In this document: piece after piece, positions 2,795-61,129 of the stretch | Layout of the letters: the number at the start of each line of letters is the position of its first letter | Numbering within the stretch: the stretch's first letter is position 1 | DNA from: Aplectana chamaeleonis | Lineage: Eukaryota; Nematoda; Chromadorea; Rhabditida; Cosmocercidae | Assembly (NCBI GenBank): GCA_029168955.1 | Contig: JAPDOI010000185.1 | Coordinates: 310,001-374,000 of the forward strand | Direction of reading: 5' to 3' | DNA length: 64,000 bases | Notes under the pieces: generated by a model | Told to the model about the DNA's origin: nothing | The model's database searches: none | The model's input: the letters and a program-made list of their open reading frames with translations, nothing else | Translations under genes and position numbers: made by a program

Positions 2795-2869
2795 CCTAGT
2801 AATGGTTTTCTTCTTCTTCTTTGCAGCCACATTGAGGGTTTTGTCATAGGTTGAGAAACTGGGCGACCA

Positions 2870-5860
2870 GTAACGGATTCGTCCATAAGTCCATTACGGT
2901 CAGCGTGGTGGGTCTCTCCGGACATTTGAAAAGGTGTGCAGTATCATGGCCAAGGCAGCCACAATCCGGGCAAACATCTGATTTGCTGCTGTCTATTTTG
3001 CTGGCGTAGGACATAAGCATGGTAGAATGACCACAGCGCAGCGATGCCAGGGTGCACCTGGCCCTTCTTCCGAGTTGAATTTACTCTCAGTATGGGATTA
3101 ATGGCCGCCTTTTCCAGATGGCACCGTACGAACTGAGTATGCTCCTCGCGCAACAGACGGAGTCGTTCTTGCTGTGAGTCGTGCCATCTTTGCAGATTGA
3201 CTTTGCTGGGAGCATCGGCGAATGGTTTTCTGACGCCTCTCTCTCTCCCTCTCTGACGGGGTCTAGCACTCTCCAAGACGGGTGATTTGGTTGTTTGACA
3301 ATGTTGATGAAAAATTGTTGGGCCTGGAGCTGACAGTGCTCCCTTACTGGTAATAAGCGGGTCTCAGAATGCAAGTGATCGACTTAGGAACTTCTTGCAC
3401 ATCCGGTGGCGATTCGAAGAGCTGCATTCTATATGCGTTGCATCTTAGTCCAAGAAGATTCCGAAACTAGATGCTGCCAGACTGGTGCGGCGTATTCTAG
3501 TGCAGGCTGGAGAATCGCCTTATACGTTGTGCTAATGGTTTCTTTGCTACTACCCCATGAGGTACCACCCAGGGCTCTAAGCACGTTAAGCTTCGCTTTC
3601 ACGATAGCCTGCTTCTGTTCCGTGTTCTTATGGAACTTGAGCGATGGATCGAACACGAGTCCGAGAAGTTTTGGGAAGCGGGCCGCAGGCAAACGATCTC
3701 CATTCCATATGACATACGGATGTGCGCTGTGTTCAGATGGGTTTGTTGTGAGTACGGATACCGATGACTTTGAGGCAGAAATCTTCAGCATTTTGCGGTC
3801 GAAGAAACTTTTCAGTGTGATCAAGTACCCGTTAATCTTAGCGGCGGCCACATTTATGTCCCGATCACGACACAAGACAGTCATATCGTCAGCGTAAGCG
3901 ACCACCCTGATATCCTGGGGAGGGGCGGGCATATCTTCGAGGTACGGACTGAAGAGAGCAGGCGACAATACGCCGCCCTGTGCGACTCCAGCTGCAATCG
4001 GAATGCTGTTTGAGACATGATTCTGGGACATCACTCTAGCCCGTCTTCCCTTAGTGAATGCAGCTATCCAGCGCTTTTGCCATGGCGGGATTGATGACTC
4101 CAGTAAGTTGTTTGATAAGATACCAAGATTCACTGTGTCGAAAGCCTTAGTGAGATCCAAGGCAACTGCTACAGTTCTTTGCGGCTTATAGGCGTTGAAA
4201 CCATCAATTGCATAGCTCGTAATTTCTAACAATGCAGTCGTGGTGGAATGCAGTCTTCTGAATCCATGCTGAAACACCTGTCTCTCGTTATACTCAGCCA
4301 GGTCCTTGACGATCAGCTTTTCAGCTACTTTAGCAAAAGAAGACAGCAAGCTAATGGGCCGATATCCCTTGACTGAAGCTTGGGGCTTGCCAGGCTTGGG
4401 CAGCGGAACGACGTTTGCCTTCTTCCAATTCTGCGGGATAGTACACGACCTGAACGAGGAGTTTATCACATCAGTGAGAAGCGGTAGTAAGTCAGTGGGT
4501 ATCTTCTTCGAAACAGCAGGACATATCCCATCAGGACCAATAGCTCTAGAGTTCCGTATTTCCTTTATAATCTTCTCAACTTGCGCCGTAGTAAAAGCTT
4601 CGGCCGTGCTCATAAGCGGGAGGCGGCACAGCTCTCTTACAGTCACTCTATTCTGCGGACCTTGTTTAGCACTGGTGATGAAAAAACTTTTCCCGAGCGC
4701 ATAAGCGGCTTCCTTTCCTGATTTGAATACACCGTTGTCGAATTCGATTGTGGAGACGGTGGCGGGTGAGCTTTTACCCGAAAGCTTCCGTAAAACCTTC
4801 CAAGTGGCTGCACTGTCTGTCTTAAAATCCAACTGCCCGGTGAACTTCTCCCACTCTTCTTTCTTAAGTCTGTCCAAATCCTTTTTTGATCTCACTGTCA
4901 AGCTCAGCAACCACGGGGTCCAGATGATTAACCGCTCTCCTCGCATCTCGTTCTAATTTTGTCGAGGATGTCTCTGTTGACATTTGGATAGAACGTCTTG
5001 ACGCGACCGATAGGAATAGCCGCATTCATGGCGTTGCGGATTGCGTCAGATAAATGGCACTCTTCCTGGTGCACGCTTCCATTCCACGGGTAATCTGCCG
5101 ATAGGCGAAGCGCAACTTCACTGAACAGGCGCCAGTCTGCTCGGCCTAATTTAAGATAAGAACGTTGGCGAACACCAGAAAAGGGAGCGAGAGAATTGGA
5201 TAGATCGATGTGGACGAAGACAGGAACATGGTCACTTGGCAAAGTCGTCGAGGTAGACCATGAGCAGCAGCTAGAAAGGTTGGACGAGACAAGAGATATG
5301 TCTGGGCTAGAAGATCGGCCGTTGGCAGGGAGACGAGTGGGCTGATCATCGTCTAAAATGACCAGGTCGCACTCATCTGCCCATTCTTCGACGTCATTTC
5401 TTCTAACATCAGGACCGAGAGACGAGCAAAAGGTGTGAGCGTTGAAATCACCCGCGAAAACGACCGAGGATGAGAGGGAGCAGTCGCTCAGCTGCTTGAG
5501 AAGTGGGATAGGACTGTAAGATGAAGGGCATGAAGTTGTAGGTGGAATGTATATGTTGAAAAGAGAAAGGGGTGTTTTTAGGGGGAGATGGATTGGGAGG
5601 TACTCGAGAGTACCGTCCGTGGGGGTGCTGGGGATGAGGTGTGAGGGAAGTGAAGATAGAACAAAAGTAGAAACTCCACCGCCGAGAGATGACCTTGGAG
5701 CATGGTAAGAAGTATAGCCTGGGATATTGGGATGAGGATAGGTAGGGGATGGAGAGAGCTTGGTTTCTTGAACCATGATCACGTCTGGATGGTAGGTACG
5801 TGCGAAGAGAGAGAGTTCAGAAAGCTTGGCACGAAGGCCGTTTAGATTGATATGCACAAT
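2870..5860 (-). pseudogene. P1 endonuclease-reverse transcriptase body
   Basis: Two overlapping open stretches (4928-5860 and 3429-4946) encode the APE endonuclease (VQETKLSPSP, FAGDFNAH, SDHVPVFVHID) and the RT. RT motifs are KAFDTVNLG, GVAQGGVLSPALF (usually GVPQGG) and AYADDMTVL. A C-terminal stretch with breaks reaches about 2870 and ends at the WTNPLL-type tail. The zinc-finger and 2A end lies beyond the RTE at 9151-9511. Confidence 0.9.
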
Positions 5861-5870
5861 GGAAAGGGGG

Positions 5871-8800
5871 GTGTGTATACAAGTCTGTTGGTACCTGCTC
5901 GTTGGTGCCCCTGCTTCTACTGAACCCAGCAGACGTTTGAGTGTACACAGGGAACGTTCGAGCGATATAGCGTGCACAACTATATCGCGAAAGTATCCCG
6001 CACATTGCATAAAGGTGTCGCCGTCCGGCACACCAAGGCCTCTGGTCCATAACACCTTAGGATCCGTACCTAAGGAGTCATGGAGTCTTTGGCCACAAGC
6101 CACAATTTCGCCACCCTGAACTGTCGATCGCTGTCGAGTGATATCCAAAAAACTGCGCTATCCAGGCTTCTGAGCTATTTCCATGCACCGTTTACGGCTT
6201 TGCAGGAAACCCGCCTCAAGGATAGACCCGTCATCAGCGTCGGAGAGTACACCATCTACTGCGGTAACGCTGACGATAGGAGAGTGGGAGGCTGTGCAAT
6301 AGCTGTAAGGAAGGATTTCAATGGTATGGTCAAGGAGTTTGGCTCAACGTCGTGCCGGAATGCATTCGTACGACTGCGGGATCACAGAGGATTCAATCTG
6401 TGGATAGTGAGTGCTCATGCGCCTACTGAAACCGCCGAAGACAATTCGAAGGATGCGTTTTATGAGGAACTCAATACGTTGCTGGCCAGGATACCTTGTC
6501 AACATGCTGTTGTCGTGGGGATTGACGCAAATGCGAAGATGGGACTTGATCAGGAATCCGAAGTACTCGGTAAATGGTTCTACCCAGTGGAGCAAACATC
6601 GGACAATGGCTACCGCCTTGTCGACTTTTGTGAACGCAGTGGTCTGATTATTGCATCGACATTCAAGAGGAATCATCGCCGCCATCAGCTTACGTGGCAG
6701 GGACCAACCCGGCTATCTTCAGAAGAGCAGCGGAAGCGGAAGATGACAACTTTGAAGCTACAGCTTGACTATGTCCTGACGAGGAATATTCCAGTATCGG
6801 ACATTCGAAGGTCTAGAGCTGTGTGGGATGTCGCTTTCGATTCGGATCACCGTCCTGTTCTGTTGAACTTCACTGCGAGGATTCATAAGAGGAAGCGAGG
6901 GGCTCGGCCTCTCCAGAGGATTGACATGACAAGTCTCAGTGATGAAGAGTACAGAAGGAATTTTCGACAACGCGTTTCTATTCACATCGGAGTACGGACT
7001 AAGAAGAAACTTTGCGACGCGGATTCTTTTGTCAAGTGCATCCAGGACGCTTCGAAAGAGGCACTCCCGGTTGTACAGCCTAAGAAGAAGTTCGCCTACG
7101 TCTCAGAAGAAACTACATCTACCTACAACAGAGTATGTGCTCTCCAAACTGCAGGAAACTTCTTGGAGGAGAAGCGTCTGAGGAGGAAGTTGCGTCGGCA
7201 GCTTCAAAAGGACCGCGAACGAGAGTGGACGTGTAGAGCTAAGGAGTTCGAGAAGGCTTGGGAGGAGAAGAATCCGAGGAAAGTCTACACGTTGCTGCGA
7301 CAGTATAGCGGGAAGATGAAGAGATGTTCTCCTGTCCTGAACACTACCAATGGAGTTGCAGTTGGTGATGCGACGCTGCCAATATGGAAGGGTTACTTCA
7401 GTTCACTACTGAATCGTCCAGCGCCATCAGTACCTGAGCTCCCGCATGTTCAGAGAGCACATTACGATGTCAGTGAGGAACCGCCGACTGATTCTGAAGT
7501 TTTGGATTGTGTCCGGAAAATGAAGAATGGAAAGGCAGGTGGAGATGACAACATCACTGCTGAAATGCTGAATGCTCTTCCTCCGTCTGGGATTCGTGAA
7601 ATGACCAACACCATCCGTGCTATATGGATGAGCGAAAGGATACCCGATTCGTGGAGACATGCGATCATCGTACCTCTTCACAAGAAGCTATCCGTCACGG
7701 ATCCTAAGAACTACAGAGGAATCTCTCTACTTCGTGTAATGTACAAGGTTTTAGAACGTATCATTCTCGAGCGACTTATCAAACATCGTGAAGGAACGAT
7801 CAGAGATGAGAAAGCCGGTTTTCGACCTGGAAGATCGACCATCGACCAAGTGTTCGTCGTGAGAAGAGTAATTGAATCGTGGCAGCGGTTTTCGAAGCCA
7901 TTACAGCTTGCTTTTTTGGACTTTGAAGTCTGACTCTCCTCATCGTGATTGATTGCTCAATGCTCTGCGAGCAGATGGAGTCCCGGAAAAGTATGTTCGG
8001 TTAATCGAGGACATGAACAAAGGAACAACAGCAGCAGTTCGTACACCCGTCGGATTTACGTCAGCTTTCGAGGTGAAAACAGGAGTAAGGCAAGGAGCCG
8101 TTGCAGGACCTTTTCTTTTCAACTTCGCCGTTGATGACATCATGCGTAGAGTTGCAGAACAGTTTCCTGCGGATGTGATCCTAACACCATTAGGACGCTC
8201 CCTTGTCGACCTTGAGTACGCCGACGACATTGTGTTATTCGCTGAAAACAACGCAAAACTGCAAAGGATTGTGAACCTCGTTTCGGAGTATGCCACAGCC
8301 TATGGACTTCGTCTTCGTCCCGACAAATGCAAGCAGATGTGGGTCTCTCAGAGGCCTTCAACGGGAGTTTGTGTGGACGGACAACGTATCGAACTGGTGG
8401 ACGATTTCTGTTATTTGGGCTGTTTGCTGAAGAACGATGATAGTTATGCAGCGGATATTCGACAACGATGTGCGAAAGCTACGTCTGCATTCAATTCTCT
8501 AACCAAGTGTTTGTGGTCTACCACCATCGCGAAGGAAGTCAAGTTGCGCGTCTACCTATCCGCTATTCGCCCTATCATGATGTACGGATCGGAGACGTGG
8601 GCAGCACCGAAGACGCAGATGGAAAGGTTGGATTGCACGGAGAGGAAGCTTTTTAGGCGTTTGCTTGGATATTTCTGGCCACGTGTATGCCATAACGAAG
8701 ACCTTTACAAGGAAATCGACGCAGTACATCAACGCTTGACACGAGGGAGGTGCCAGCATCTCCTAACGCCATCTCAAGCAGCAATGGAAAGTCGACTTCG

Positions 8801-9140
8801 ACTGCTCGGGCATATACTAAGAAGAACGCCGGATCGTCTCGTACAACACGCTTTAAAAATGCTTCCAAATCCTGTCTGGAAACGGCCACCTGGGCGTAGG
8901 CGAAAGTTTTGGACGGATGTGGTTAAAGAGGATTTGAAGTCACTCGGCATCGAAAGACAGTTCAGGCGCCATGTTTCGTTCCGCAGGAAATGGAATAGTG
9001 ACAGCTGGATGTAATGTGTTCAAATTGTGGCTGAAGACCGTGAAGAATGGACACGGCTGGCTACTAAGACGGCACACCTCGGTGAAGATGCGGAATGACC
9101 GCTTCAGGCGAAAGCCAACCGATTAAGTCAAGTAAGTCAA
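5871..9140 (+). mobile_element. RTE-type non-LTR retrotransposon, copy A
   Basis: It is full length and inserted in P1, with the 10-bp target duplication GGAAAGGGGG on both sides (5861-5870 and 9141-9150). It starts GTGTGTATAC and ends with GATTAAGTCAAGTAAGTCAA. A 5' leader of about 210 nt precedes the ATG at 6080. The leader carries a 7-bp stem (CCTTAGG/CCTAAGG) ending a few bases before that ATG. A sister copy is at 33487-36533. Confidence 0.95.
6080..9014 (+). pseudogene. RTE endonuclease-reverse transcriptase, copy A (broken in RT motif A)
   Basis: The open frame 6080-7933 encodes an N-terminal APE endonuclease and the fingers of the RT. Endonuclease landmarks are LNCRSLSS, LQETRLKD, VSAHAPTE, GIDANAKMG, LDYVLTRN and SDHRPV. 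RT landmarks are WRHAIIVPLHKK, NYRGISLL and AGFRPGRSTIDQ. The second frame, 7953-9014, carries motif B (TGVRQGAVAGPFLF), motif C (LEYADDIVLF) and a C-terminal domain ending near KFWTDVVKEDLKSLG. Between them the motif A segment is lost: LDFE is kept, but the AAFDS bases are replaced by a short out-of-frame stretch, and CGA has become TGA eight codons later. Copy B keeps LDFEAAFDSPHRDRL here. This copy therefore cannot make an active RT. Confidence 0.93.
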
Positions 9141-9150
9141 GGAAAGGGGG

Positions 9151-16056: not shown

Positions 16057-19000
16057 GGGGTATGGTATACTTTGTCGCTGTAATGAGCGACAGACATGCA
16101 ATCTAACACAAATCGCGGCGGGACCCGCATCGGAGCAATGGCAACGGCTGTCGTGGGAACAGATGTCGCGTGTGGGTCGCAGCGACGTGTCGCGGAGGGC
16201 TGACATACTGCAAATGTGCCATAGCCTGTCGCTACCACTGTCGCTGTCGCTGTGCAGTGCACGGCGAAAGCGAGAGATTTAAAGGGCGGGAGGCGGTCGC
16301 TGTCGCTGTGCAGAGCGACGCGACCGTGTGTCTTCTTCTTCTTCTTTGCAGCCACATCGAGGGTTTTGTCATAGGTGAAGAAACTGGGCGACCAGTAGTG
16401 GATTCGTCCATAGATCCATTATGGTCAGCGTGGTAGGTCTTTCCGGACAGCGAAATAAATGTGCTGTATCATGGCCGATAGTACCGCAGTCCGGACAGAC
16501 ATCAGATTTGCTGCTGTCGATTTTGCTGACGTAGGACATGAGCATTGACGAGTGACCGCAGCGCAACGATGCCAGTGTGCATCTAGACCTTCTTCCGAGT
16601 TGAGTCTCGGATTCGCAGACTGGGGGCGGTACTTCTCCTAGTATAGGATTCACTGCCGCCTTCTCAAGATGACACCGTACGAACTTGGTGTGCTCCTCGC
16701 GCAAAAGACGGAGTCGTTCTTGCTGTGAGTCGTGCCATCTCTGCAAGTTAACTTTGCATGGAGCATCGGCAAATGGCATTCTTTTGGCTCTCTCTCTAAC
16801 GGGGTTAAGCACTCTCCAGGACGGGTGGTTTGGTTGCTTAATAATATTGATTCGTAATTGTTGGGCTTGCAGCTGACAGTGCTCCTTCACAGGCAATAGA
16901 CGGGCTTCGGCATGCAGATGCTCGACTGGGGAACTCTTTGCACATCCGGTGGCAATGCGAAGAGCGGCATTTTGTACGCGTTGCATCTGAAACCAGGAAG
17001 ATTCTGAAACTAGATGCTGCCAAACCGGTGCGGCGTATTCCATGGCTGGCTGAAGAATCGCCTTATACGTCATGAGTATCGTTTCCTTGCTGCTACCCCA
17101 TGAGGTACCGCCTAGGGCCCTGAGAACATTGAGTTTGGCTTTAACGACAGCCTGCTTCTGCTCGGTATTTTTATGAAACTTGAGCGACGGATCGAGCACA
17201 AGACCGAGTAGTTTTGGAAATCGAGCAGCAGGCAGACGTTCTCCATCCCACTCTACCTCCGGATGAGCTCTGTGCTCGGATGGGTCCGTTGTGAGGACGG
17301 ATACTGATGATTTCGATGCGGAGATCTTTAGCATCTTGTCGTCGAAGAACCTCTTCAGCGTCTTCAGGTACTCGTTGATCTTGGTGGCGGCTACCTTTAT
17401 ATCCCGGTCTCGACACATGATTGTTATATCATCGGCGTAGGCGACAGTCTTGATATCCTGTGGTGGTTCAGGCATATCTTCTAGATACAGACTGAAGAGA
17501 GCTGGTGATAAAACACCGCCCTGGGGGACTCCAGCTGCCATAGGAATACTGTTGGAGACATGGTTCTGGAACATGACTCTTGCCCGTCGACCTTTGATAA
17601 AGGCCGATATCCAGCGCTTTTGCCACGGTGGTATTGACGACTCCAAAACGTTTCTCGACAGGATTCCTAGGTTAACCGTATCGAAAGCCTTGGTGAGATC
17701 CAACGCGACAGCAACAGTTCTCAATGGCTTCAAAGCGTTGAACCCGTCGATTGCATAGCTAGTAATTTCTAGCAACGCAGTAGTTGTAGAATGCAGCCTT
17801 TTGAACCCGTGTTGAAACAATTGTTTCTCGTTATGCTCTGCTAAATTCTCCACAATGAGCTTTTCGGCTACCTTAGCGAAAGGTGACATCAAGCTAATGG
17901 GTCGATAACCTTTTACTGACGACTGAGGTTTGCCTGGCTTCGGCAACGGGATGACGTTGGCTGTCTTCCAGTTTTGGGGAATAATGCACGAGCTGAATGA
18001 AGTGTTAATCACATCAACGACGAGTGGGAGGATCTCAGTCGGGAGCTTCTTCAGTACAGCAGGACAAATGCCGTCGGGACCGACAGCTTTGGAGTTCCGC
18101 ATGTCCTTTATGATCTTCTCTACGTGCGCCACAGTGTACGCATCGGCCGTGCTCATGAGCGGGAGGCGGCACAGCTCTCTAACTGTCACTCTATTCTGCG
18201 GACCACGCCGTGTACTTGTGACAAAGAAGCTTTTTCCAAGAGAGTAGGCGGCTTCCTTACCCGTCTTGAAAACGTTATTATCAAATTCAATGGTGGATAC
18301 GGTAGCTGGCGAGCTCTTTCCAGATAGCTTCCGTAGTACCTTGCACTGTCCGCCTTGAAATCCAACTGTCCCGTGAACTTTTCCCATTCTTCTTTCTTGT
18401 GCCTGTCCAGATCTTTTCTGATCTCGTCATCGAGTTGAGCAACGACAGGGTCTAGATGGTCGGCTGCTCTCCTGGCATCTCTAGTCCTAATCTTTTGGAG
18501 AATTTCTCTGGTGACGTTTGGATAGAACGTCTTAACGCGGCCAACAGGAATAGCCGCCTTCATGGCCCGGCGGATTACATCAGACAGGTGGTGCTCTTTT
18601 GATGCACATTGCCGTTCCACGGATAGTCAGCCGCTAGGCGGAGCGCAACCTCGCTGAACAGGCACCAGTCTGCTTGGCCTAAATTGAGATAAGAACGTTG
18701 TCGAACACCAGAATAAGGAGCAAGAGAATTTGAGAGATCGATGTGCACAAAGACAGGAATATGATCACTAGACAATGTAGTCGAGGTAGACCATGAGCAG
18801 GTGTTTGAAAGGTTGGAAGAGACAAGAGTTATGTCTGGGCTAGAAGATCGGCCGTTGGCAGGGAGGCGAGTGGGCTGATCATCGTTTAGTATGACCAGGT
18901 CGCACTCCTCCGCCCATTCCTCGACGTCAGTTCCTCTAGCATCAGAGCCAAGAGACGAGCAAAATGTATGAGCATTAAAATCGCCCGCAAATATAGACGA

Positions 19001-19808
19001 AGATGAGAGGGAGCAGTCGTAAAGCTGCCTGAGGAGTAGAATAGGATCATAGGATGGAGGGCATGATGTGGTAGGGGGAATATAGATGTTGAAGAGAGAA
19101 AGGGGAGTTTTGAGGGGGAGATGGACCGGGAGGTACTCGAGAGTACCGTCCGTGGGAGTGTTAGGTATGAGGTGTGAGGGAAGAGTAGATAATACAAAAG
19201 TAGAAACTCCTCCGCCAAGATTTGACCTTGGAGCATGGTAAGAAGTATAGCCCGGGATATTGGGATGAGGAGTTGTAGGGGATGGAGAGAGCTTGGTTTC
19301 CTGAACCATGATCACGTCTGGATGGTAAGTACGTGCAAAGAGAGATAGCTCAGAAAGCTTGCCACGAAGGCCGTTGAGATTTATATGTACAATGGAAAGG
19401 GGGCGATTGGAGTTTGAGGAATCAGAGTTGGTAGGTGAGGAGCACAAAACACATCGAAAAGAAGAGTTATGATGCCTCACAGAGCAGAGACCCGAACGGG
19501 AGAGATGCACCCACCTTTGGCATCCGAAGCACTGGACGCTGGTATGTCTCCTGGTAACATCCTTGCCGCACGCGGCGCATAGGTACTTCTGAGCGGGTCC
19601 AGGATTCCTCTCCACGCCGGCCCTTTGCAGGAGAATCCGAAGGAGAGCTGCGGCCGGCCAGCACCTCTCCCATGACAAAAACCCTCTTCGTGGAGGGGAT
19701 GACGTCGGTTTGCACGGAGATGATCTTCTTTCCTCCACACTGCCACGGCACGAACGTACGACATCTCGGCAGCACGCGACCGTGTGTCGCAGAAGTATAC
19801 CATACCCC
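16057..19808. mobile_element. MITE with GGGGTATGGTATACT ends and 3-bp duplication, carrying P2
   Basis: The ends GGGGTATGGTATACT and AGTATACCATACCCC are inverted and flanked by TGA on both sides, inside the LTR. Without P2 the element is about 300 bp. It contains several CGCTGTCGCTGT-type short repeats. A 3-bp duplication with a G-rich tip suggests PIF/Harbinger, but the duplication is TGA rather than the usual TWA, so the class is tentative. Confidence 0.75.
16333..19773 (-). mobile_element. LINE family P, copy P2 (full length)
   Basis: 3441 bp, with the 15-bp target duplication ACGCGACCGTGTGTC on both sides (16318-16332 and 19774-19788). Open stretches 18575-19738 (2A-like motif, zinc finger, endonuclease) and 16369-18387 (RT to C-terminus) are separated by two lesions. 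One is a one-base deletion in the A-run near 18600. The other is a 10-bp deletion near 18340. RT motifs KAFDTVNLG, GVPQGGVLSPALF and AYADDITIM are intact, and the C-terminal CPDCGTIGHDTAHLFRC knuckle is present. The heptamer GGGTTTT (19678-19684, minus) and pseudoknot are identical to P1 and P3. It belongs with P3 in a subfamily (ISLMSPFAK). Confidence 0.94.
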
Positions 19809-25200: not shown

Positions 25201-25471
25201 TGTACCCTATTTTCTTCCGGTTCCGGGCTTAAAAAGTCGGAAACGGAAGCGGAACGGAACAGCTCAAAAACACCGGAAGTACGGAAACGGGATCGGAACA
25301 CTTCCGCACAGCCCTGGTAGGTACCCTTACCTTTTTTAAAGCAATAAAAATGCCGGTTCTGGAATCCCCGTAGCCATTTAGTCAATTTCAAGCACGGGTC
25401 ATTTATATACTCTTAAAGACCTACCGCAACGACAATATGATTTTCCTAATCACCACCGGAAAGCTGCCGAG

Positions 25472-25759
25472 ATGTCGTACGTTCACGCCGTGGCAGTGTG
25501 GAGGAAAGAAGATCACCTCTATGCAAACCGACGTCACCCCCTCCGCGAAGAGGGTTTTTGTCATGGGAGAGGTGCTGGCCGGCCGCAGCTCTCCTTCGGA
25601 TTCTCCTGCAAAGGGCCGGCGTGGAGAGGAATCCTGGACCCGCTCAGAAGTACCTATGCGCCACGTGCGGCAAGGATGTTACCAGGAGACATACCAGCGT
25701 CCAGTGCTTCGGATGCCAAAGGTGGGTGCATCTCTCCTGTTCGGGTCTCTGCTCTGTGA
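25472..25759 (+). CDS. P-family first-AUG overlapping frame (possible frameshift donor)
   Basis: This 95-codon frame opens at the first AUG of the element, 10 nt from its 5' end. It overlaps the main frame, which is -1 relative to it and lacks any ATG before the 2A-like motif. Equivalent frames exist in P1 (9511-9224), P2 and P4 (38452-38736). The peptide (MSYVHAVAVWRKEDHL..., later RGAGRPQLSFGFSCKG) has no domain I recognise. Codons 28-29 (GGT TTT, preceded by G) form a slippery heptamer. Whether the rest of the frame is translated as a product or only serves as an entry to the main frame is unknown. Confidence 0.55.
   Translation: MSYVHAVAVWRKEDHLYANRRHPLREEGFCHGRGAGRPQLSFGFSCKGPAWRGILDPLRSTYAPRAARMLPGDIPASSASDAKGGCISPVRVSAL
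25552..25620 (+). promoter_or_regulatory. predicted -1 ribosomal frameshift signal (slippery site and pseudoknot)
   Basis: Heptamer G GGT TTT at 25552-25558 in the first-AUG frame; spacer TGTCATG (25559-25565); stem 1 GGAGAG 25566-25571 with CTCTCC 25589-25594; stem 2 GCCGGCC 25578-25584 (inside the loop of stem 1) with GGCCGGC 25614-25620. This is H-type pseudoknot geometry. A -1 shift continues as TTG TCA TGG, i.e. LSWERCW of the main frame. P1 and P2 are identical here. P4 has lost three bases in the heptamer region. Confidence 0.6.
25618..25641 (+). other. 2A-like ribosome-skipping motif in the P main frame
   Basis: The main frame reads AALLRILLQRA then GVERNPGP. The consensus for 2A is D(V/I)ExNPGP, preceded by a leucine-rich helix. 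Only the first Asp is replaced, by Gly. 2A-like sequences are established in APE-type LINEs of trypanosomes and several animals. Separation would occur between the final Gly and Pro, releasing the zinc-finger/endonuclease/RT protein from a short leader. Confidence 0.65.
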
Positions 25760-28700
25760 GGCATCATAACTCTTCTTTCCGATGTGTTTTGTGCTCCTCA
25801 CCTACCAACTCTGATTCCTCAAACTCCAATCGCCCCCTTTCCATTGTACATATCAATCTCAACGGCCTTCGTACTAAACTTTCTGAGCTCTCTCTCTTCG
25901 CACGTACTTACCATCCAGACGTGATCATGGTTCAAGAAACCAAGCTCTCTCCATCCCCTACCTATCCTCATCCTAATATCCCGGGCTACACTGCCTTCCA
26001 TGCTCCAAGGTCAGCTCTTGGCGGAGGAGTTTCAACCTTTGTTTTATCCTCTCTCCCCTCCCACCTCATACCAAACACCCCCACGGATGGTACTCTCGAG
26101 TACCTTCCAATCCATCTCCCCCTTAAAACTCCCCTTTCTCTGTTTAACATCTATATTCCCCCTACCACCTCATGCCCCTCCTCCTACAATCCCATTCCTC
26201 TTCTCAAACAACTCAACGATTATTCCCTCTCATCATCAGTTGTTTTCGCGGGCGACTTTAATGCCCACACCTTCTGCTCGTCCCTTGGTTCTGATGCTAG
26301 AGGAGAAGAAGTCGAAGAATGGGCTGAGGAGTGCGACCTGTCTTAAACGATGATCAGCCCACTCGTCTCCCTGCCAACGGCCGATCTTCTAGCCCAGACA
26401 TAACTCTTATCTCGTCCAACCTTTCCAACGCTTGCTCATGGTCTACCTCAACAACATTGTCTAGTGATCATGTTCCCGTCTTTGTGCACATCGATCTCTC
26501 AAATTCTCTTGCTCCTTATTCTGGTGTTCGTCAACGTTCTTATCTCAATTTAGGCCAAGCAGACTGGTGCCTGTTCAGTGAGGTTGCGCTACGCCTAGCG
26601 GCTGATTACCCGTGGAATGGCAATGTGCACCAGAAGGAGCATCACTTATCTGATGCAATTCGCAGGGCCATGAAGGCGGCTATCCCTGTTGGCCGAGTTA
26701 AGACGTTCTATCCAAACGTCACCAGAGAAATTCTTCAGAAAATCAGGACTAGAGATGCCAGAAGAGCAGTTGACCATCTAGACCCTGTCGTCGCTCAGCT
26801 GGATGGTGAGATCAGAAAAGATCTCGACCAGCACAAGAAAGAACAGTGGGAAAAATTCACAGAACAGTTGAATTTCAAGACGGACAGTGGAGCTACTTGG
26901 AAGGTGCTTCGGAAACTATCGGGAAAGAGCTCGCCAGCCACCATCTCCACTATTGAGTTCGGTAATAACGTTTTCAAGTCAGGAAAGGAAGCCGCCTACT
27001 CTCTCGGTAAAAGTTTCTTTGTCACGAGTACAAGGCGAGGTCCGCGAAATAGAGTGACAGTAAGAGAGCTGTGCCGCCTCCCGCTCATGAGCACGGCCGA
27101 AGCGTACACTGCGGCGCAAGTAGAGAAGATTATAAAGGACATGCGGAACTCCAAAGCTGTCGGTCCGGACGGCATTTGTCCTGCTGTACTGAAGAAACTC
27201 CCGACTGAGATCCTTCCGCTCATCGTTGATATGATTAACACTTCGTTTAGCTCTTGCACTATTCCGCAAAACTGGAAGACAGCCAACGTCATCCCGTTGC
27301 CCAAGCCTGGCAAACCTCAGTCATCAGTAAAGGGATATCGTCCCATTAGCTTGATGTCACCTTTCGCCAAGGTGGCCGAAAAGCTCATTGTCAAGGATCT
27401 AGCGGAGCACAACGAGAAGCAGTTGTTTCAACATGGGTTCAGGAGGCTACATTCCACAACTACGGCGTTGCTAGAAATTACCAGCTATGCTATCGACGGG
27501 TTCAACTTTAACAAGCCATTGAGAACTGTAGCTGTTGCGTTGGATCTCACCAAGGCATTTGATACGGTTAACCTTGGAGTCCTGTCAAGCAACATTCTGG
27601 AGTCGTCAATACCATCTTGGCAGAAGCGCCGGATATCGGCCTTTATTAAAGGTCGGCGGGCAAGAGTCATGTTTCAGAACCATGTCTCCAACAGTATTCC
27701 TATGGCAGCTGGAGTCCTCAGGGCGGAGTTCTATGGCCAGCCCTCTTCAATCTGTACCTCGGAGATATGCCTGAGCCTCCACAGGACATCAAGGTCGTCG
27801 CGTATGCCGATGACATAACAATCATGTGTCGAGATCGGGACTTACAGGTGGCCGCCAATAAGATCAACGAGTACCTGATCACACTAAAGAGTTTTTTCGA
27901 CCGCAAGATGCTAAGTATCTCTGCAGCCAAGTCGTCAGTGTCCGTTCTCACGACGGACCCATCCGAGCACAGCGCTCATCCGGATGTCGTGTGGGATGGA
28001 GACCGTTTGCCTGCTGCTCGCTTTCCAAAGCTGCTCGGTCTTGTGCTCGATCCGTCACTCAAGTTTCGTAAGAATACCGAGCAGAAGCAGGCAGTCGTTA
28101 AAGCTAAGCTCAACGTTCTCAGGGCCCTGGGCGGCACTTCGTGGGGTAGCAGCAAGGAGACTATACTCACAACGTATAAGGCAATTCTGCAGCCCCCCCT
28201 GGAGTATGCCGCACCGGTTTGGCAGCATCTCGTCTCAGAATCCTCCTGGACAAAGATGCAACGAGTACAAAATGCTGCTCTCCGTATCGCCACCGGATGT
28301 GCAAGGAGTTCCCCAATCGAGCACCTGCATGCTGAGACCCGTCTATTACCAGTGAAGGAGCCCTGTCAGCTCCAGGCCCAGCAATTCCGGATTAACATTA
28401 TAAAACAACCAAATCACCCGTCGCGGAGAGTACTAAACCCCGTGAGAGAGAGAAGTATAAGAAAGCCATTCGCCGATGCTCCAAACAAAGTCAATTTGCA
28501 AAGATGGCACGACTCACAGCAAGAACGACTCCGTCTTTTGCGCGAGGAGCACACCAAGTTGGTACGGTGTCATCTTGTGAAGGTGGCCATAAATCCTATA
28601 CTAGGAGATATACCGCCCCCCGTCTGCACCTCAGAGTCAACTCGGAAGAAGGGCGAGATGCACGCTCGCATCATTACGCTGTGGTCACTCTACAATGCTA

Positions 28701-28916
28701 ATGTCTTATGTCAGCAAGATTGACAGCAGCGAATCTGATGTGTGCCCGGACTGCGGTATCGTCGGCCATGATACCGCACATTTATTCAACTGTCCGGAGA
28801 GACCTACCACGCTGACACCAATGGACCTATGGACGAATCCACTACTGGTCGCCCAGTTCCTCCGCCTATGACAAAACCCTCTATGTGGCTGCAAAGAAGA
28901 AGAAGACCACCGGAAA

Positions 28917-32894: not shown

Positions 32895-33486
32895 TATGTT
32901 TATTTAATTGAATTTTCAATCCTTACAGTTGGCCAGAGCAAAAAGTATAGACGCTCAAGTAATGCAGATTATGAGTGCGATGAGATGACAAATGTTCATC
33001 GAACCTTCCTTTTCCCAGGCAATAAAAGCTCGATTACTCTGTTAGAAGCTCAATACATATGTATGTCTGTGCAAGGAGTCGGAGCGAGCTTTCCGTTTCT
33101 TAGTGTACATATGTTGACACTGGTTGTGAGATAACTGCTGGTTTGAACACTGTACTACTCTTCAGAGCTGACAGTTACGCCCGCACCGCGCGCCTGTGCT
33201 GTTAGAGTATAACTAACCTGAGGCGCTGTTCGCTCCACGTTGAGAGCCTCTCGTACCGCTGTGGCAGAATTATCACCTGCCTCATAGCCTCAACATCAAC
33301 TTCTTGGCGCTTCATCTTAACTGAATTCTGTGCCATCTGAGTTGCAGTGAGATAAAACACGCATTTAAAGTTTTGCGTGCATGGCACAGTTGGGGCCAAC
33401 ATTACCCCGCTCCACCAAAGCAGGTACGCTGGGGAGCGGGTATGAATAGTGGGCGTTGAGTATTTACTATCAGTATTAATGGCTTG

Positions 33487-36400
33487 GGGGTGTGTATACA
33501 AGTCTGTTGGTACCTGCTCGTTGGTGCCCCTGCTTCTACTGAACCCAGCAGACGTTTGAGTGTACACAGGGAACGTTCGAGCGATATAGCGTGCACAACT
33601 ATATCGCGAAAGTATCCCACACATTGCATAAAGGTGTCGCCGTCTGGCACACTAAGGCCTCTGGTCCATAACACCTTAGGATCCGTACCTAAGGAGTCAT
33701 GGAGTCTTTGGCCACAAGCCACAATTTCGCCACCCTGAACTGTCGATCGCTGTCGAGTGATATCCAAAAAACTGCGCTATCCAGACTTCTGAGCTATTTC
33801 CATGCACCGTTTGCTGCTTTGCAGGAAACCCGCCTCAAGGATAGACCCGTCATCAGCGTCGGAGAGTACACCATCTACTGCGGTAACGCTGACGATAGGA
33901 GAACGGGAGGCTGTGCAATAGCTGTAAGGAAGGATTTCAATAGTATGGTCAAGGAGTTTGGCTCAACGTTGTGCCGGAATGCATTCGTACGACTGCGGGA
34001 TCACAGAGGATTCAATCTGTGGATAGTGAGTGCTCATGCGCCCACTGAAACCGCCGAAGACAATTCGAAGGATGCGTTTTATGAGGAACTCAATACGTTG
34101 CTGGCCAGGATACCTTGTCAACATGCTGTTGTCGTGGGGATTGACGCAAATGCGAAGATGGGACTTCATCAGTGGAGCAAACATCGGACAATGGCTACCG
34201 CCTTGTCGACTTTTGTGAACGCAGTGGTCTGATTATTGCATCGACATTCAAGAGGAATCATCGCCGCCATCAGCTTACGTGGCAGGGACCAACCCAGCTA
34301 TCTCCAGAAGAGCAGCGGAAGCGGAAGATGACAACTTTGAAACTACAGCTTGACTATGTCCTGACGAGGAATATTCCAGTATCGGACATTCGAAGATCTA
34401 GAGCTGTACGGGATGTCGCATTCGATTCGGATCACCGTCCTGTTCAGTTGAACTTCACTGCGAGGATTCATAAGAGGAAGCGAGGGGCTCAGCCTCTCCA
34501 GAGGATTGACATGACAAGTCTCAGAGATGAAGAGTGCAGAAGGAATTTTCGACAACGCGTTTCTATTCACATCGGAGTACGGACCAAGAAGAAATTTTGC
34601 GACGCGGATTCTTTTGTCAACAAAGTGACCGCGAACGAGAGTGGACGTGTAGAGCTAAGGAGTTCGAGAAGGCTTACCAGAAGAAGAATCCGAAGAAAGC
34701 CTACACGTTGCTGCGACAGTATAGTGGGATGATGAAGAGATGTTCTCCTGTCTTGAACACTACCAATGGAGTTGCAGTTGGTGATGCGACGCTGCCAATA
34801 TGGAAGGATTACTTCAGTTCACTACTGAATCGTCCAGCGCCATCAGTACCTGAGCTCCCGCATGTTCAGAGAGCACATCACGATGTCAGTGAGGAACCGC
34901 CGAGTCTGAAGTTTTGGATTGTGTCCAGAAAATGAAGAATGGAAAGGCAGGTGGAGGTGACAACATCACTGCTGAAATGCTGAAAGCTCTTCCTCCGCAT
35001 GGGATTCGTGAAATGACCAACACCATCCGTGCCATATGGATGAGCGAAAGGATACCCGATTTGTGGAGACATGCGATCATCGTACCTCTTCACAAGAAGC
35101 TATCCGTCGCGGATCCTATGAACTACAGGGGAATCTCTCTACTTCGTGTCATGTACAAGGTTTTAGAACGTATCATTCTCGAGCGACTTATCAAACATCG
35201 TGAAGGAACGACCAGAGATGAGCAAGCCGGTTTTCGACCTGGAAGACCGACCATCGACCAAGTGTTCGTCGTGAGAAGAGTAATTGAATCGTGGCAGCGG
35301 TATTCGAAGCCATTACAGCTTGCTTTTTTGGATTTTGAAGCCGCGTTCGACTCTCCTCATCGTGATCGATTGCTCAATGCTCTGCTAGCAGATGGAGTCC
35401 CGGAAAAGTATGTTCGGTTAATCGAGGACATGAACAAAGGAACAACAGCAGCAGTTCGTACACCAGTCGGATTTACGTCAGCTTTCGAGGTGAAAACAGG
35501 AGTAAGGCAAGGAGCCGTTGCAGGACCTTTTCTTTTCAATTTCGCCGTTGATGACATCATGCGTAGAGTTGCAGAACAGTTTCCTGCGGATGTGATCCCA
35601 ACACCATCAGGACGCTCCCTTGTCGACCTGGAGTACGCCGACGACATTGTGTTATTCGCTGAAAACAACGCAAAACTGCAAAGGATTGTGAACCTCGTTT
35701 CGAAGTATGCCGCAGCCTATGGACTTCGTCTTTGTCCCGACAAATTCAACCAGATGTGGGTCTCTCAGAGGCCTTCAACGGGAGTTTGTGTGGACGGACA
35801 ACGTATCGAACTGGTTGACGATTTCTGTTATTTGGGCTGTTTGCTGAAGAACGATGGTAGTTATGCAGCGGATATTCGACAACGATGTGCGAAAGCTACG
35901 TCTGCATTTAATTCTCTAACAAAGTGTTTGTGGTCTACCACCATCGCGAAGGAAGTCAAGTTGCGCGTCTACCTATCCGCTATTCGCCCTATCATGATGT
36001 ACGGATCGGAGACAAGGGCAGCACCGAACACGCAGATGTAAAGGTTGGATTGCACGGAGAGGGAGCTTTTTAGGCGTTTGCTTGGATATTTCTGGCCGCG
36101 TGTATGCCATAACGAAGACCTTTACAAGGAAATCGACGCAGTACATCAACGCTTGACACGAGGGAGGTGCCTGCATCTCCTAAAGCCATCTCAAGCAGCA
36201 ATGGAAAGTCGACTTCGACTGCTGGGGCATATACTAAGAAGAACGCCGGATCGTCTCGTACAACACGCTCTGAGAATGCTTCCAAATCCTGTCTGGAAAC
36301 GGCCACTTCTGGACGGATGTGGTTAAAGAGGATTTAAAGTCACTCGGCACCGAAAGACAGTTCAGGCGCGATGTTTCGTTTCGCAGGAAATGAAATAGTG

Positions 36401-36533
36401 ACAGCTGGGTGGAATGTGTTCAAATTGTGGCTGAAGACCGTGAAAAATGGACACGGCTGACTACTAGGACGGCAAACCTCGGTGAAGATGCGGAATGACC
36501 GCGTCAGGCGAAAGCCAGCCGATTAAGGTAAGG
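33487..36533 (+). mobile_element. RTE-type LINE, copy B
   Basis: Flanked by the 12-bp duplication ATTAATGGCTTG (33475-33486 and 36534-36545). Nearly the same 5' leader as copy A. The ATG frame opens at 33699 and breaks at a 35-nt deletion near 34170. A deletion of about 180 nt near 34620 removes the linker between endonuclease and RT. Motif A (LDFEAAFDSPHRDRL), motif B (TGVRQGAVAGPFLF) and motif C (LEYADDIVLF) are intact in frame 34914-36041, which ends at a TAA. A further deletion is at about 36305. Confidence 0.94.
33699..36326 (+). pseudogene. RTE endonuclease-RT, copy B (deleted)
   Basis: Endonuclease 33699-34230 and 34172-34600, RT 34914-36041, C-terminal part 36045-36326. The RT catalytic Asp residues are present (FDS and YADD), unlike copy A, but the large deletions make the protein non-functional. 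Confidence 0.92.
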
Positions 36534-38442: not shown

Positions 38443-41400
38443 GCTGCCAAGATGTCGTACGTTCGTGCCGTGGCAGTGTGGAGGAAAGAAGATCGCCTCC
38501 GTGCAAACCGACGTCATCCCCTCCACAAAGGTTTTTGTCATGGGAGAGGTGCTGGCCGGCCGCAGCTCTCATTCGGATTCTCCTGCAAAGGGCCGGCGTG
38601 GAGAGGAATCCTGGACCCGCTCAGAAGTATCTATGCGCCACGTGCGGCAATGAGGTTAACTGGAGACATACCAGCGTCCAGTGCTTCGGATGCCAAAGGT
38701 GGGTGCACTTCTCCTGTTCGGGTCTCAGTTCTGTGAGGCATCATAACCCATCTTTTCGTTGTGTATTATGCTCCTCACCTTCCAACTCAGATTCCTCTAT
38801 CGCAAATCGCCCCCTTTCAATTTTGCATATATTTTGCTAAACGGCCTTCGTGCCAAGCTTTCTGAACTCTCTCTCTTCGCACGTACCTACCATCCAGACG
38901 TTATCATGGTTCAAGAAACCAAGCTCTCTCCATCCCCTACCTATCCTCATCCCAATATCCCAGTCTATACTTCTTACCATGCTCCAAGGTCATCTCTCGG
39001 CGGTGGAGTTTCTACTTTTGTTCAATCTTCACTTCCCTCACACCTCATCCCCAGCACCCCCACGGACGGTACTCTCGAGTACCTCCCAATCCATCTCCCC
39101 CTAAAAACACCCCTTTCTCTTTTCAACATATACATTCCACCTACAACTTCATGCCCTTCATCTTACAGTCCTATCCCACTTCTCAAGCAGCTGAGCGACT
39201 GCTCCCTCTCATCCTCGGTCGTTTTCGCGGGTGATTTCAACGCTCACACCTTTTGCTCGTCTCTCGGTCCTGATGTTAGAAGAAATGACGTCGAAGAATG
39301 GGCAGATGAGTGCGACCTGGTCATTTTAGACGATGATCAGCTCACTCGTCTCCCTGCCAACGGCCGATCTTCTAGCCCAGACATATCTCTTGTCTCGTCC
39401 AACCTTTCTAGCTGCTGCTCATGGTCTACCTCGACGACTTTGCCAAGTGACCATGTTCCTGTCTTTGTCCACATCGATCTATCCAATTCTCTCGCTCCCT
39501 TTTCTGGTGTTCGCCAACGTTCTTATCTTAATTTAGGCCGAGCAGACTGGCGCCTGTTCAGTGAAGTTGCGCTTCGCCTATCGGCAGATTACCCGTGGAA
39601 TGGAAGCGTGCACCAGAAAGAGTGCCATTTATCTGACGCAATCCGCAAGGCCATGAATGCGGCTATTCCTATCGGTCGCGTCAAGACGTTCTATCCAAAT
39701 GTCAACAGAGACATCCTCGACAAAATTAGAACGAGAGATGCGAGGAGAGCGGTTAATCATCTGGACCCCGTGGTTGCTGAGCTTGACAGTGAGATCAAAA
39801 AGGACTTGGACAGACTTAAGAAAGAAGAGTGGGAGAAGTTCACCGGGCAGTTGGATTTTAAGACGGACAGTGCAGCTACTTGGAAAGTTTTACGGAAGCT
39901 TTCGGGTAAAAGCTCACCCGCCACCGTCTCCACAATCGAATTCGACAACGGTGTATTCAAATCAGGAAAGGAAGCCGCTTATGCGCTCGGGAAAAGTTTT
40001 TTCATCACCAGTGCTAAACGAGGTCCGCAGAATAGAGTGACTGTAAGAGAGCTGTGCCGCCTCCCGCTTATGAGCACGGCCGAAGCATTTACTACGGCGC
40101 AAGTTGAGAAGATTATAAAGGAAATACGGAACTCCAGAGCTATTGGTCCTGATGGGATATGTCCTGCTGTCTTGAAGAAGATACCCACTGACTTACTACC
40201 GCTTCTCACTGAGGTGATAAACTCCTCGTTCAGGTCGTGTACTATCCCGCAGAATTGGAAGACGGCAAACGTCGTTCCGCTGCCCAAGCCTGACAAGCCC
40301 CAAGCTTCAGTGAAGGGATATCGGCCCATTAGCTTGTTGTCTTCTTTTGCTAAAGTAGCTGAAAAGCTGATCGTCAAGGACCTGGCTGAGTATAACGAGA
40401 GACAGGTGTTTCAGCATGGATTCAGAAGACTGCATTCCACCACGACTGCATTGTTAGAAATTACGAGCTATGCAATTGATGGTTTCAACGCCTATAAGCC
40501 GCAAAGAACTGTAGCAGTTGCCTTGGATCTCACTAAGGCTTTCGACACAGTGAATCTTGGTATCTTATCAAACAACTTACTGGAGTCATCAATCCCGCCA
40601 TGGCAAAAGCGCTGGATAGCTGCATTCACTAAGGGAAGACGGGCTAGAGTGATGTTCCAGAATCATGTCTCAAACAGCATTCCGATTGCAGCTGGAGTCC
40701 CACAGGGCGGCGTATTGTCGCCTGCTCTCTTCAGTCTGTACCTCGAAGATATGCCCGCCCCTCCCCAGGATATCAAAGTGGTCGCTTACGCTGACGATAT
40801 GACTGTCTTGTGTCGTGATCGGGACATAAATGTGGCCGCCGCTAAGATTAACGGGTACTTGATCACACAGAGAAGTTTCTTCGACCGCAAAATGCTGAAG
40901 ATTTCTGCGTCAAAGTCATCGGTATCCGTACTCACAACGGACCCATCTGAACACAGCGCACATCCGTATGTCATATGGAATGGAGATCGTTTGCCTGCGG
41001 CCCGCTTCCCAAAACTTCTCGGACTCGTGTTCGATCCATCGCTTAAGTTCCATAAGAACACGGAACAGAAGCAGGCTATCGAGAAAGCGAAGCTTAACGT
41101 GCTTAGAGCCCTGGGCGGTACTTCATGGGGTAGTAGCAAAGAAACCATTATTACAACGTATAAGGCGATTCTCCAGCCTGCACTAGAATACGCCGCACCA
41201 GTCTGGCAGCATCTAGTTTCGGAATCTTCTTGGACTAAGATGCAACGCATACAGAATGCAGCTCTTCGAATCGCCACCGGATGTGCAAGAAGTTCCTAAG
41301 TCGATCACTTGCATTCTGAGACCCGCTTATTACCAGTAAGGGAGCACTGTCAGCTCCAGGCCCAACAATTTTTCATCAACATTGTCAAACAACGAAATCA

Positions 41401-41893
41401 CCCGTCTTGGAGAGTGCTAGACCCCGTCAGAGAGAGAGAGGCGTCAGAAAACCATTCTCCGATGCTCCCAGCAAAGTCAATCTGCAAAGATGGCACGACT
41501 CACAGCAAGAACGACTCCGTCTGTTGCGCGAGGAGCATACTCAGTTCGTACAGTGCCATCTGGAAAAGGCGGCCATTAATCCCATATTGGGGGTAGTGCC
41601 GCCCCAAGTCTGCACATCCGAGGCTGAACTCGGAAGAAGGGCCAGGTGCACCCTGGCATCGCTGCGCTGCGGTCATTCTACCATGCTTATGTCCTACGTC
41701 AACAAAATAGACAGCATCAAATCAGATGTTTGCCCGGACTGTGGCTGCCTCGGCCATGATACTGCACACCTTTTCAAATGTCCGGAGAGACCCACCACGC
41801 TGACCGTAATGGACTTATGGACGAATCCGTTACTGGTCGCCCAGTTTCTCAACCTATGACAAAACCCTCAATGTGGCTGCAAAGAAGAAGAAG
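38443..41893 (+). mobile_element. LINE family P, copy P4
   Basis: From GCTGCCAAGATG to the GAAGAAGAAG tail, about 3.45 kb. I found no clear target duplication. It belongs with P1 in a subfamily (ISLLSSFAK) and shares P1's TAA in the C-terminal region (AGTTCCTAAGTC). The leader has lost three bases at the slippery site (AGGTTTT instead of GGGTTTT), and stem 1 has one mismatch. Confidence 0.93.
38452..41859 (+). pseudogene. P4 zinc finger-endonuclease-RT (longest surviving P frame)
   Basis: This is the best view of the protein. The leader has LLQRAGVERNPGP. A PHD-like finger (CATCGNEV...CFGCQRWVHFSCSG...FRCVLCSS) follows. A frame change near 38838 leads into the APE endonuclease (HPDVIMVQETKLSPSP, FAGDFNAHTFCSS, SSPDISLVSSNL, SDHVPVFVHIDLSN). 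The RT has motif 1-2 NVVPLPKPDKP, KGYRPISLL; motif A ALDLTKAFDTVNLG; motif B AGVPQGGVLSPALFSLYLED; and motif C VVAYADDMTVL. The C-terminus has a CPDCGCLGHDTAHLFKC knuckle and the end WTNPLLVAQFLNL. The domain order (finger, APE, RT, knuckle, no RNase H seen) suggests a jockey/ingi/Vingi-like clade. Breaks: frameshift near 38838, TAA at 41297, GA-run slip near 41435. Confidence 0.92.
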
Positions 41894-56250: not shown

Positions 56251-56848
56251 CTATAACAAACATCAAGTAGTAAAATTACTATTACCGAACCGAATATAAA
56301 TACAGTTTTAGTTTAAAATGTCTCCAAACTCCTCGAAAACTATTTCTTATCAGTCCTTTTTGGTCTGCAGGGCCGTCAAGTTCCAGACAGACCGCTGACC
56401 CATAACTCGACGCAGCTACATACCTCTTCCACTTGTGACCAAAATTCTTTGGAAATGTCGGAAATTTTCACTTCAGCCTAAAAAATTTTTTCCGAAAACG
56501 TTGAACTTGAAATTTTTGGAAAAAAAAACTGTTTCAGAACTCATTCTTGATTTTTTTGTAATTGACACTACACTTTTTACCTTGAAGGCAGTGGTCACGA
56601 TGAAAAACGTTATCCAAAAAACTATAAAAATCAGCTCAGATCAAAAACAGCTCAAAACTATGAAGGTAGCGCGCTGAAAAACGGGTTAGAATTAGAAATG
56701 CAATTTTACCAAATAAAAACAGCTGAGCAATTAAAGAAAGCACTCCAGTCAATCTTTCTGACTAGATAAGTAATGCTCATTGATTGGAATTCAATTTCAA
56801 GCCAGCTGATGTTTTTGATATTAGAGATCATCGATGCCGATGATGTGC

Positions 56849-61039: not shown

Positions 61040-61129
61040 TTTCATTTTATTTTCCTAAAGGTTTCCTTTCTAACATGATTCATGCCTGGTGGTGTTAGAT
61101 GAAAGTAAACCCACTGAAGTCCTGCCCCC

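What the first reader, a model, noticed from the sequence alone, without database searches (positions are those of the whole stretch)
25472..25641. Retrotransposon family P appears to use -1 programmed frameshifting: slippery heptamer plus H-type pseudoknot
The main frame of P (2A-like motif, zinc finger, endonuclease, RT) has no ATG at its start. The first AUG, 10 nt from the element 5' end, opens a different frame. At codons 28-29 of that frame is G GGT TTT (25552-25558), a canonical X XXY YYZ site. It is followed by a 7-nt spacer, a 6-bp stem (25566-25571/25589-25594) and a 7-bp second stem joining its loop to 25614-25620. A -1 shift lands in the main frame at LSWERCW. About 110 nt around this are identical in P1, P2 and P3, although the flanks of P1 and P3 differ at a dozen or more sites. 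P4 has a 3-base deletion in the heptamer and one stem mismatch. I know of no described nematode LINE with this arrangement.
Basis: partly seen in the sequence, partly recalled or inferred. Interest (0 to 1): 0.88.

Follow-up and report, generated by a model that had tools for sequence, protein, structure and literature searches.

The report
Ribozyme-headed nematode LINE without AUG
A very abundant jumping gene of a roundworm starts with what looks like a self-cutting RNA and then makes its enzyme from a reading frame that has no normal start; an unusually well preserved RNA signal beside it may make ribosomes slip back one letter into that frame.

Summary
In detail: 25552-25558 is G GGT TTT, in frame with the AUG at 25472; a -1 shift enters the AUG-less main frame, and the stems exist. 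Subfamilies from the whole genome add three things. (1) The first 73 nt (25463-25535) fold as an HDV-like self-cleaving ribozyme starting at the element's 5' end; the AUG lies inside its P2 helix. (2) Behind it lie two hairpins, HP0 (25539-25554) and HP1 (25565-25595). Across 10 subfamily-level sequences 0 of 28 arm sites vary against 14 of 29 unpaired sites (P=1.5e-5; P=3.5e-4 and 1.3e-3 with other arm definitions), and the heptamer is invariant (0 of 7) while its spacer varies (3 of 7). Synonymous change in the main frame is suppressed there. (3) The second pseudoknot stem varies like a loop. No frame upstream of the 2A-like motif shows protein-level selection. So an RNA signal is real; -1 frameshifting, stimulated by a bulged hairpin rather than a proven pseudoknot, is the best single explanation (about 0.5), with ribozyme-linked non-AUG initiation as chief rival. 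The organism is a nematode (SL1 leader found). No translation data exist here.

The parts
25463..28906 (+). LINE copy P3 (APE-type endonuclease, RT; 2A-like motif; weak PHD-finger match); this copy is broken by frameshifts
   Evidence: blastn against the other copies; frames; Pfam and PDB search on the open frame of sister copy L062
25463..25535 (+). HDV-like ribozyme fold: P1 25463-25468/25492-25497, P2 25471-25477/25529-25535, P3 25479-25481/25489-25491, P4 25500-25504/25516-25520, L3 25482-25488, catalytic C 25524 in GCAAA
   Evidence: descriptor hits the 5' end of 4 of 4 window copies; 246 of 249 pair cells formed in 12 sequences; paired 5 of 42, core 0 of 11 sites variable in 10 sequences
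25472..25474 (+). first AUG, inside P2; opens the frame one base ahead of the main frame
25498..25500 (+). GUG, the only near-cognate start codon in the main frame (up to element nt 134) shared by all 10 representatives; A at -3 in 9 of 10 (C in E), G at +4 in 10 of 10
25539..25554 (+). hairpin HP0: CCCUC 25539-25543 / GAGGG 25550-25554, loop 25544-25549
   Evidence: pairs in 10 of 10 representatives; arms 0 of 10, loop 5 of 6 sites variable
25552..25558 (+). slippery heptamer GGGUUUU
   Evidence: invariant in 10 of 10 representatives
   Evidence: outer arms 0 of 12 and my inner arms 0 of 6 sites variable; fold -18.2 kcal/mol in A, -14.3 in F
25614..25620 (+).
25591..25641 (+). 2A-like motif LLRILLQRAGVERNPGP in the main frame
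   Evidence: 13 of 15 substitutions synonymous at element nt 131-176, 5.4 expected
16334..19773 (-). LINE copy P2
9141..9520 (-). 5' piece of LINE copy P1, cut by a nested element; rest at 2809-5870
38443..41893 (+). LINE copy P4 with a private 3-base deletion in the heptamer region

Best explanation
The 5' end of this LINE is a compact RNA device. A co-transcript cuts itself at the element's first base through an HDV-like ribozyme (fold shown, cleavage inferred). The AUG inside P2 then starts a throw-away leader peptide once the ribozyme is unwound (inferred). At GGGUUUU, followed after 7 nt by the bulged hairpin HP1 and preceded by hairpin HP0, a share of ribosomes slips -1 into the AUG-less main frame (inferred; the signal's RNA-level conservation is shown). 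The 2A-like motif lets the ribosome drop the leader, so the enzyme starts at the same proline whatever preceded it (inferred); this would explain why no frame upstream of 2A is under protein selection.
For: Heptamer 0 of 7 sites variable, spacer 3 of 7; hairpin arms 0 of 28 against unpaired 14 of 29, P=1.5e-5; outer stems only 0 of 22 against 14 of 35, P=3.5e-4; pairs of the RNAalifold consensus 3 of 34 against 11 of 23, P=1.3e-3. Main-frame synonymous third positions variable 1 of 13 in nt 87-133 against 24 of 34 in nt 134-235 in 7 representatives, P=1.6e-4. AUG frame open to the heptamer in 10 of 10. AUG-less ribozymes occur as 23 scattered copies of three kinds (12 ACG, 7 AAG, 4 AGG), no sign of an AUG-less subfamily (the exact pattern excludes subfamily A, and AUG-bearing copies were not counted). 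GGGUUUU is the slippery site of barley yellow dwarf virus and gave 112% of wild-type shifting in PEMV; known stimulators include large bulged hairpins, and removing an upstream hairpin raised basal shifting there (PMC4737148, passages). Ribozyme. SL1 trans-splicing could not supply a start codon: the genome's SL1 holds no AUG.
Against: The AUG is 9 nt from a presumably uncapped 5' end and in a helix. The AUG-frame peptide shows no purifying selection (8 synonymous of 25 substitutions, 6.3 expected, P=0.28). GGG is also an arm of HP0 and the AUG part of P2, so both have other reasons to be kept. No two-sided covariation in any helix. In F the hairpin is not in the minimum-energy fold of nt 90-160, though it is in that of nt 74-135. 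Some single copies have a broken heptamer with the 2A region readable (L102, L103; second copy in L007), though fetched members of the L007 and L103 groups keep it (6 and 2 members). The AUG at 25563-25565 is invariant too and unexplained.
Confidence: 0.5

Rival explanations
1. Ribozyme-linked, cap-independent initiation directly in the main frame at a non-AUG codon, as proposed for R2 and suggested for L1Tc; HP0, the linker and HP1 are the ribosome-loading structure and the heptamer is incidental.
For: Precedent: R2 has an HDV-like ribozyme, a proposed cap-independent translation and a conserved 5' pseudoknot thought to act in initiation (PMC12203849, passages; PMC3414825, passages); in L1Tc the RNA just behind the 77-nt ribozyme is proposed to switch structure for translation (PMC4035085, Background section). 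Main frame open before the heptamer in 10 of 10; GUG at 25498 conserved in 10 of 10, with A at -3 in 9 of 10.
Against: The only conserved near-cognate is inside the ribozyme and loses its good context in subfamily E; UUG at 25558 is lost in F. Does not explain why UUUU of the heptamer is kept while the next bases change. The heptamer-plus-stem coincidence is about 0.2%.
Confidence: 0.3
2. The hairpin block serves the RNA life of the element (ribozyme attenuation, binding by the element's protein, reverse transcription), and the main frame is entered by some other route.
For: RNA-level conservation without frame preference; R2 5' RNA regulates integration (PMC12203849, passages).
Against: Leaves the AUG-less frame unexplained.
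Confidence: 0.15
3. A spliced or trans-spliced exon supplies the start.
For: Nematode with SL1 genes.
Against: The element begins at 25463, SL1 has no AUG, I saw no U-rich AG acceptor in nt 1-130 of the window copy (by eye; no splice-site program was run), and the first in-frame ATG is codon 156, inside the endonuclease.
Confidence: 0.05

Closest known systems
L1Tc/ingi LINEs of trypanosomatids
   Same: 77-nt HDV-like ribozyme at the 5' end, structured RNA behind it, AP endonuclease and RT (PMC4035085, Background section); 2A at the N-terminus (recalled)
   Different: P lacks an in-frame AUG and has an invariant slippery heptamer between two hairpins; other host; kinship not tested
R2 retrotransposons
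   Same: HDV-like 5' ribozyme, cap-independent translation proposed, conserved structure behind it
   Different: R2 inserts into 28S rRNA genes and has another endonuclease type (the latter recalled); P has an APE-type endonuclease and unlike flanks
BYDV/PEMV-type -1 frameshift signals
   Same: GGGUUUU heptamer (BYDV), short spacer, bulged hairpin, hairpin upstream (PMC4737148, passages)
   Different: No stop codon next to the heptamer; zero-frame leader of only 28 codons; no long-range partner sought; activity unknown
APE-type non-LTR elements with 2A-like sequences (Odon 2013, seen only as a reference title)
   Same: 2A-like motif in an APE-type LINE
   Different: Octapeptide here is GVERNPGP, not D(V/I)ExNPGP

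Membership tests
HDV-like ribozymes | nested pseudoknot of P1, P2, P3, P4 with P1 at the cleavage site | tested here: met
   9 of 10 representatives form all 21 pairs, subfamily E has one P1 and one P4 mismatch
HDV-like ribozymes | catalytic C in J4/2 followed by NAA (motif recalled) | tested here: met
   GCAAA at 25523-25527, core 0 of 11 sites variable
HDV-like ribozymes | P1.1 mini-helix | tested here: inconclusive
   C22-G36 possible, neighbouring U21/U37 is no standard pair (by eye)
HDV-like ribozymes | match to a curated Rfam model (a practical test, not part of the definition) | tested here: not met
   0 matches at gathering score in the window and 0 at E<=10 in 25400-25700; a trypanosomatid survey calls an earlier set of search rules too restrictive (PMC4035085, passages)
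HDV-like ribozymes | self-cleavage at 25462/25463 | not testable with these tools
   needs in vitro transcription; 71 of 75 copies with flank start exactly there
-1 programmed frameshifting | X XXY YYZ heptamer in the zero frame | tested here: met
   10 of 10
-1 programmed frameshifting | stable structure 5-9 nt downstream | tested here: met
   stem 1 after 7 nt pairs 6 of 6 in 10 of 10; in F it is not in the minimum-energy fold of nt 90-160 but is in that of nt 74-135
   pairs formed in 95.5% of cells but no two-sided change; stem 2 varies like a loop
-1 programmed frameshifting | shifted product | not testable with these tools
   needs reporter, peptide or ribosome-profiling data
2A/StopGo | D(V/I)ExNPGP | tested here: not met
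   GVERNPGP in the 8 of 10 representatives read that far (L118 and L119 were fetched only to nt 140). DVE-type codons occur at 54 exact pattern matches in the genome; the 8 fetched are unlike single copies. A G at this place is active in some viral 2As (recalled)
APE-type LINE | Exo_endo_phos endonuclease and RT | tested here: met
   PF14529 4.7e-13, PF03372 2.5e-9; LINE-1 ORF2p is the best solved match, over RT

The most novel reading that the evidence does not exclude
An animal LINE whose whole enzyme is made only after a -1 frameshift out of a leader frame that starts inside a self-cleaving ribozyme, with a 2A-like motif discarding the leader: ribozyme, frameshift signal and StopGo packed into 180 nt.
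Probability: 0.4. Interest if true: 0.85.

Novelty: new variant of a known kind. Interest (0 to 1): 0.62.

Why it matters
How ribozyme-processed, uncapped LINE RNAs are translated is an open question. Here a 180-nt segment of a family with thousands of first-look candidates and several young subfamilies offers a small testable module in which ribozyme, frame choice and 2A can be separated by point mutations that keep pairing.

Tried and rejected
Rejected: UUG at 25558 as start (lost in subfamily F); the AUG at 25563 as start (its frame shows no coding signal, and it would need a +1 shift); an AUG-less subfamily (none seen in the 23 matches); a heptamer-less subfamily E, suspected from one copy: six fetched members keep GGGUUUU, as do two members each of G and of the L103 group.

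Led nowhere: protein homologs elsewhere (2 weak hits of 24-26% identity among 8000 scored candidates); viral and prokaryote contigs (no relative confirmed); Rfam; energy z-scores of the pseudoknot stretch (0.33 in A, 0.76 in F, -1.02 in C); covariation (none). The first structure counts mix old single copies among 12 rows; the later test uses 10 rows, of which P19, P9 and D2 are single copies. My inner helix of HP1 is not the register RNAalifold prefers; the test was repeated without it and with RNAalifold's pairs.

Papers: Ruminski 2011, the L1Tc ribozyme paper and Odon 2013 are not held; they are known here only from reference lists, others' passages or recall. Searches for a prior report of such an arrangement; I saw none in the listings, in an open-licence library only, and read none of the listed papers in full.

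Full report
Numbering: element nt e = window position minus 25462.

What is there. The window lies in a 1.037-Gb, 2087-contig eukaryote genome, contig C1035. It is a nematode: the genome holds GGTTTAATTACCCAAGTTTGAG followed by GT, the nematode spliced leader SL1 (sequence recalled), in 3 SL1-like matches of 45.6-50 bits, below Rfam's cut-off of 75; two were read. The window holds four P copies. A 451-nt 5' query has 4231 first-look candidates, of which the 40 scored match at 96-100%. Further queries showed more groups: C, B, D, F, E, G and the L103 group; each listing is capped at 40 scored candidates. In B, E, F, G and the L103 group many members score alike, and the fetched members are nearly identical over the stretch read (F: 6 of 6 over 241 nt; E: 6 of 6 over the first 150 nt), hence recently active. 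The protein frame has a 2A-like motif, a weak PHD-finger match (20.5 bits, cut-off 24), an APE-type endonuclease and RT. Of 75 distinct copies with at least 12 nt of flank, 71 begin exactly at GCTGCC, with unlike flanks.

Ribozyme. e1-73 fold as an HDV-like nested pseudoknot. A descriptor (P1, J1/2, P2, P3, L3, P1', P4, CNAA, P2') finds the 5' end of 4 of 4 window copies within 1 nt; its other 4 hits in the window lie in two AT-rich repeat places. Markov sequences gave 262 hits in 421 strands of 64 kb, 0.62 each. I wrote the descriptor after seeing the sequence. P1 is 6 bp with a 2-nt J1/2; published ribozymes lose activity without a spacer there (PMC4908430, passages). Among 10 subfamily-level sequences the L3/J4-2 core has 0 of 11 variable sites, paired sites 5 of 42, L4 5 of 11. 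Of the five paired changes, those at 57, 58 and 71 keep pairing; 54 is kept in P19 but broken in E; 33 breaks P1 in E. So E may have a weaker ribozyme. Rfam does not recognise it.

RNA block. Consensus folding of e74-135 in 9 sequences gives HP0 and HP1. With my arms, 0 of 28 arm sites vary and 14 of 29 unpaired sites of e77-133 do (P=1.5e-5); with HP0 and the outer stem alone 0 of 22 against 14 of 35 (P=3.5e-4); with RNAalifold's own pairs 3 of 34 against 11 of 23 (P=1.3e-3). Heptamer 0 of 7, against 14 of 25 unpaired sites outside it (P=0.010), spacer 3 of 7. Sites share one phylogeny, so P values are guides. Over 7 representatives, main-frame synonymous third positions vary 1 of 13 in e87-133 and 24 of 34 in e134-235, P=1.6e-4.

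Frames. In e10-96, 25 substitutions: synonymous 8 in main (7.5 expected), 8 in the AUG frame (6.3), 4 in the third (6.9); no frame is selected (with 7 representatives 20 substitutions, same result). In e97-132 main has 2 synonymous of 11 (2.0 expected). In e131-176 main has 13 of 15, 5.4 expected, 0 of 5000 simulations as high. Protein selection thus begins at the 2A-like region. The AUG and main frames are free of stops before the heptamer in 10 of 10; so is the third as read, so openness alone says little.

Pseudoknot. Both stems form in 95.5% of cells but without two-sided change. Stem 2: 4 of 14 sites vary in 7 representatives, a fifth (e122) in G. Four of the five are C/T differences that keep a G-U pair, three of them at CpG; e152 in C breaks the end pair. 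Duplex energy falls from -15.0 (A) to -9.9 (F) and -10.5 (C) kcal/mol, and in F the predicted hairpin pairs e116 with the changed e123, which excludes stem 2. I judge it inconclusive, leaning against. A bulged hairpin suffices in known signals.

Mechanism. Two routes into the AUG-less frame remain. Frameshifting uses the first AUG, explains the invariant UUUU beside a changing spacer, and fits a known slippery site; the heptamer-plus-stem coincidence is about 0.2%. Against it: AUG and GGG are each needed by another RNA helix, the AUG is 9 nt from a presumably uncapped end, and a 28-codon unselected leader gives no evident benefit, save that 2A may discard it. Non-AUG initiation has the precedent of R2 and L1Tc but only one conserved near-cognate, GUG 25498, whose A at -3 is lost in E. 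Frameshifting in a non-LTR element is on record for HeT-A gag (PMC5009743, passages).

Verdict.

Noticed in passing
25563-25565 (e101-103): AUG in a GNNAUGG context, invariant in 10 of 10 representatives, third frame, no coding signal behind it; reason for its conservation unknown.
   Followed up: partly
25592-25597 (e130-135): Right behind hairpin HP1 the AUG frame ends after 41 codons, at TGA in B, C, F and the L103 group and at TAA in E and G; A, D, P19 and P9 have no stop there.
   Followed up: partly
5870-9141: Copy P1 is split by a nested LINE of about 3.3 kb whose sister lies at about 33486-36532.
   Followed up: no
61103-61858: Tandem array with 21/42-nt spacing; beside it an inverted repeat 60406-60685/60761-61040.
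   Followed up: no
56848-57147 and 57509-57808: 300-nt stretch repeated at 661 nt distance, 99% identical.
   Followed up: no
L109, L110: SL1-like genes: the 22-nt leader is the nematode SL1 (recalled) while the match as a whole scores below Rfam's cut-off.
   Followed up: partly
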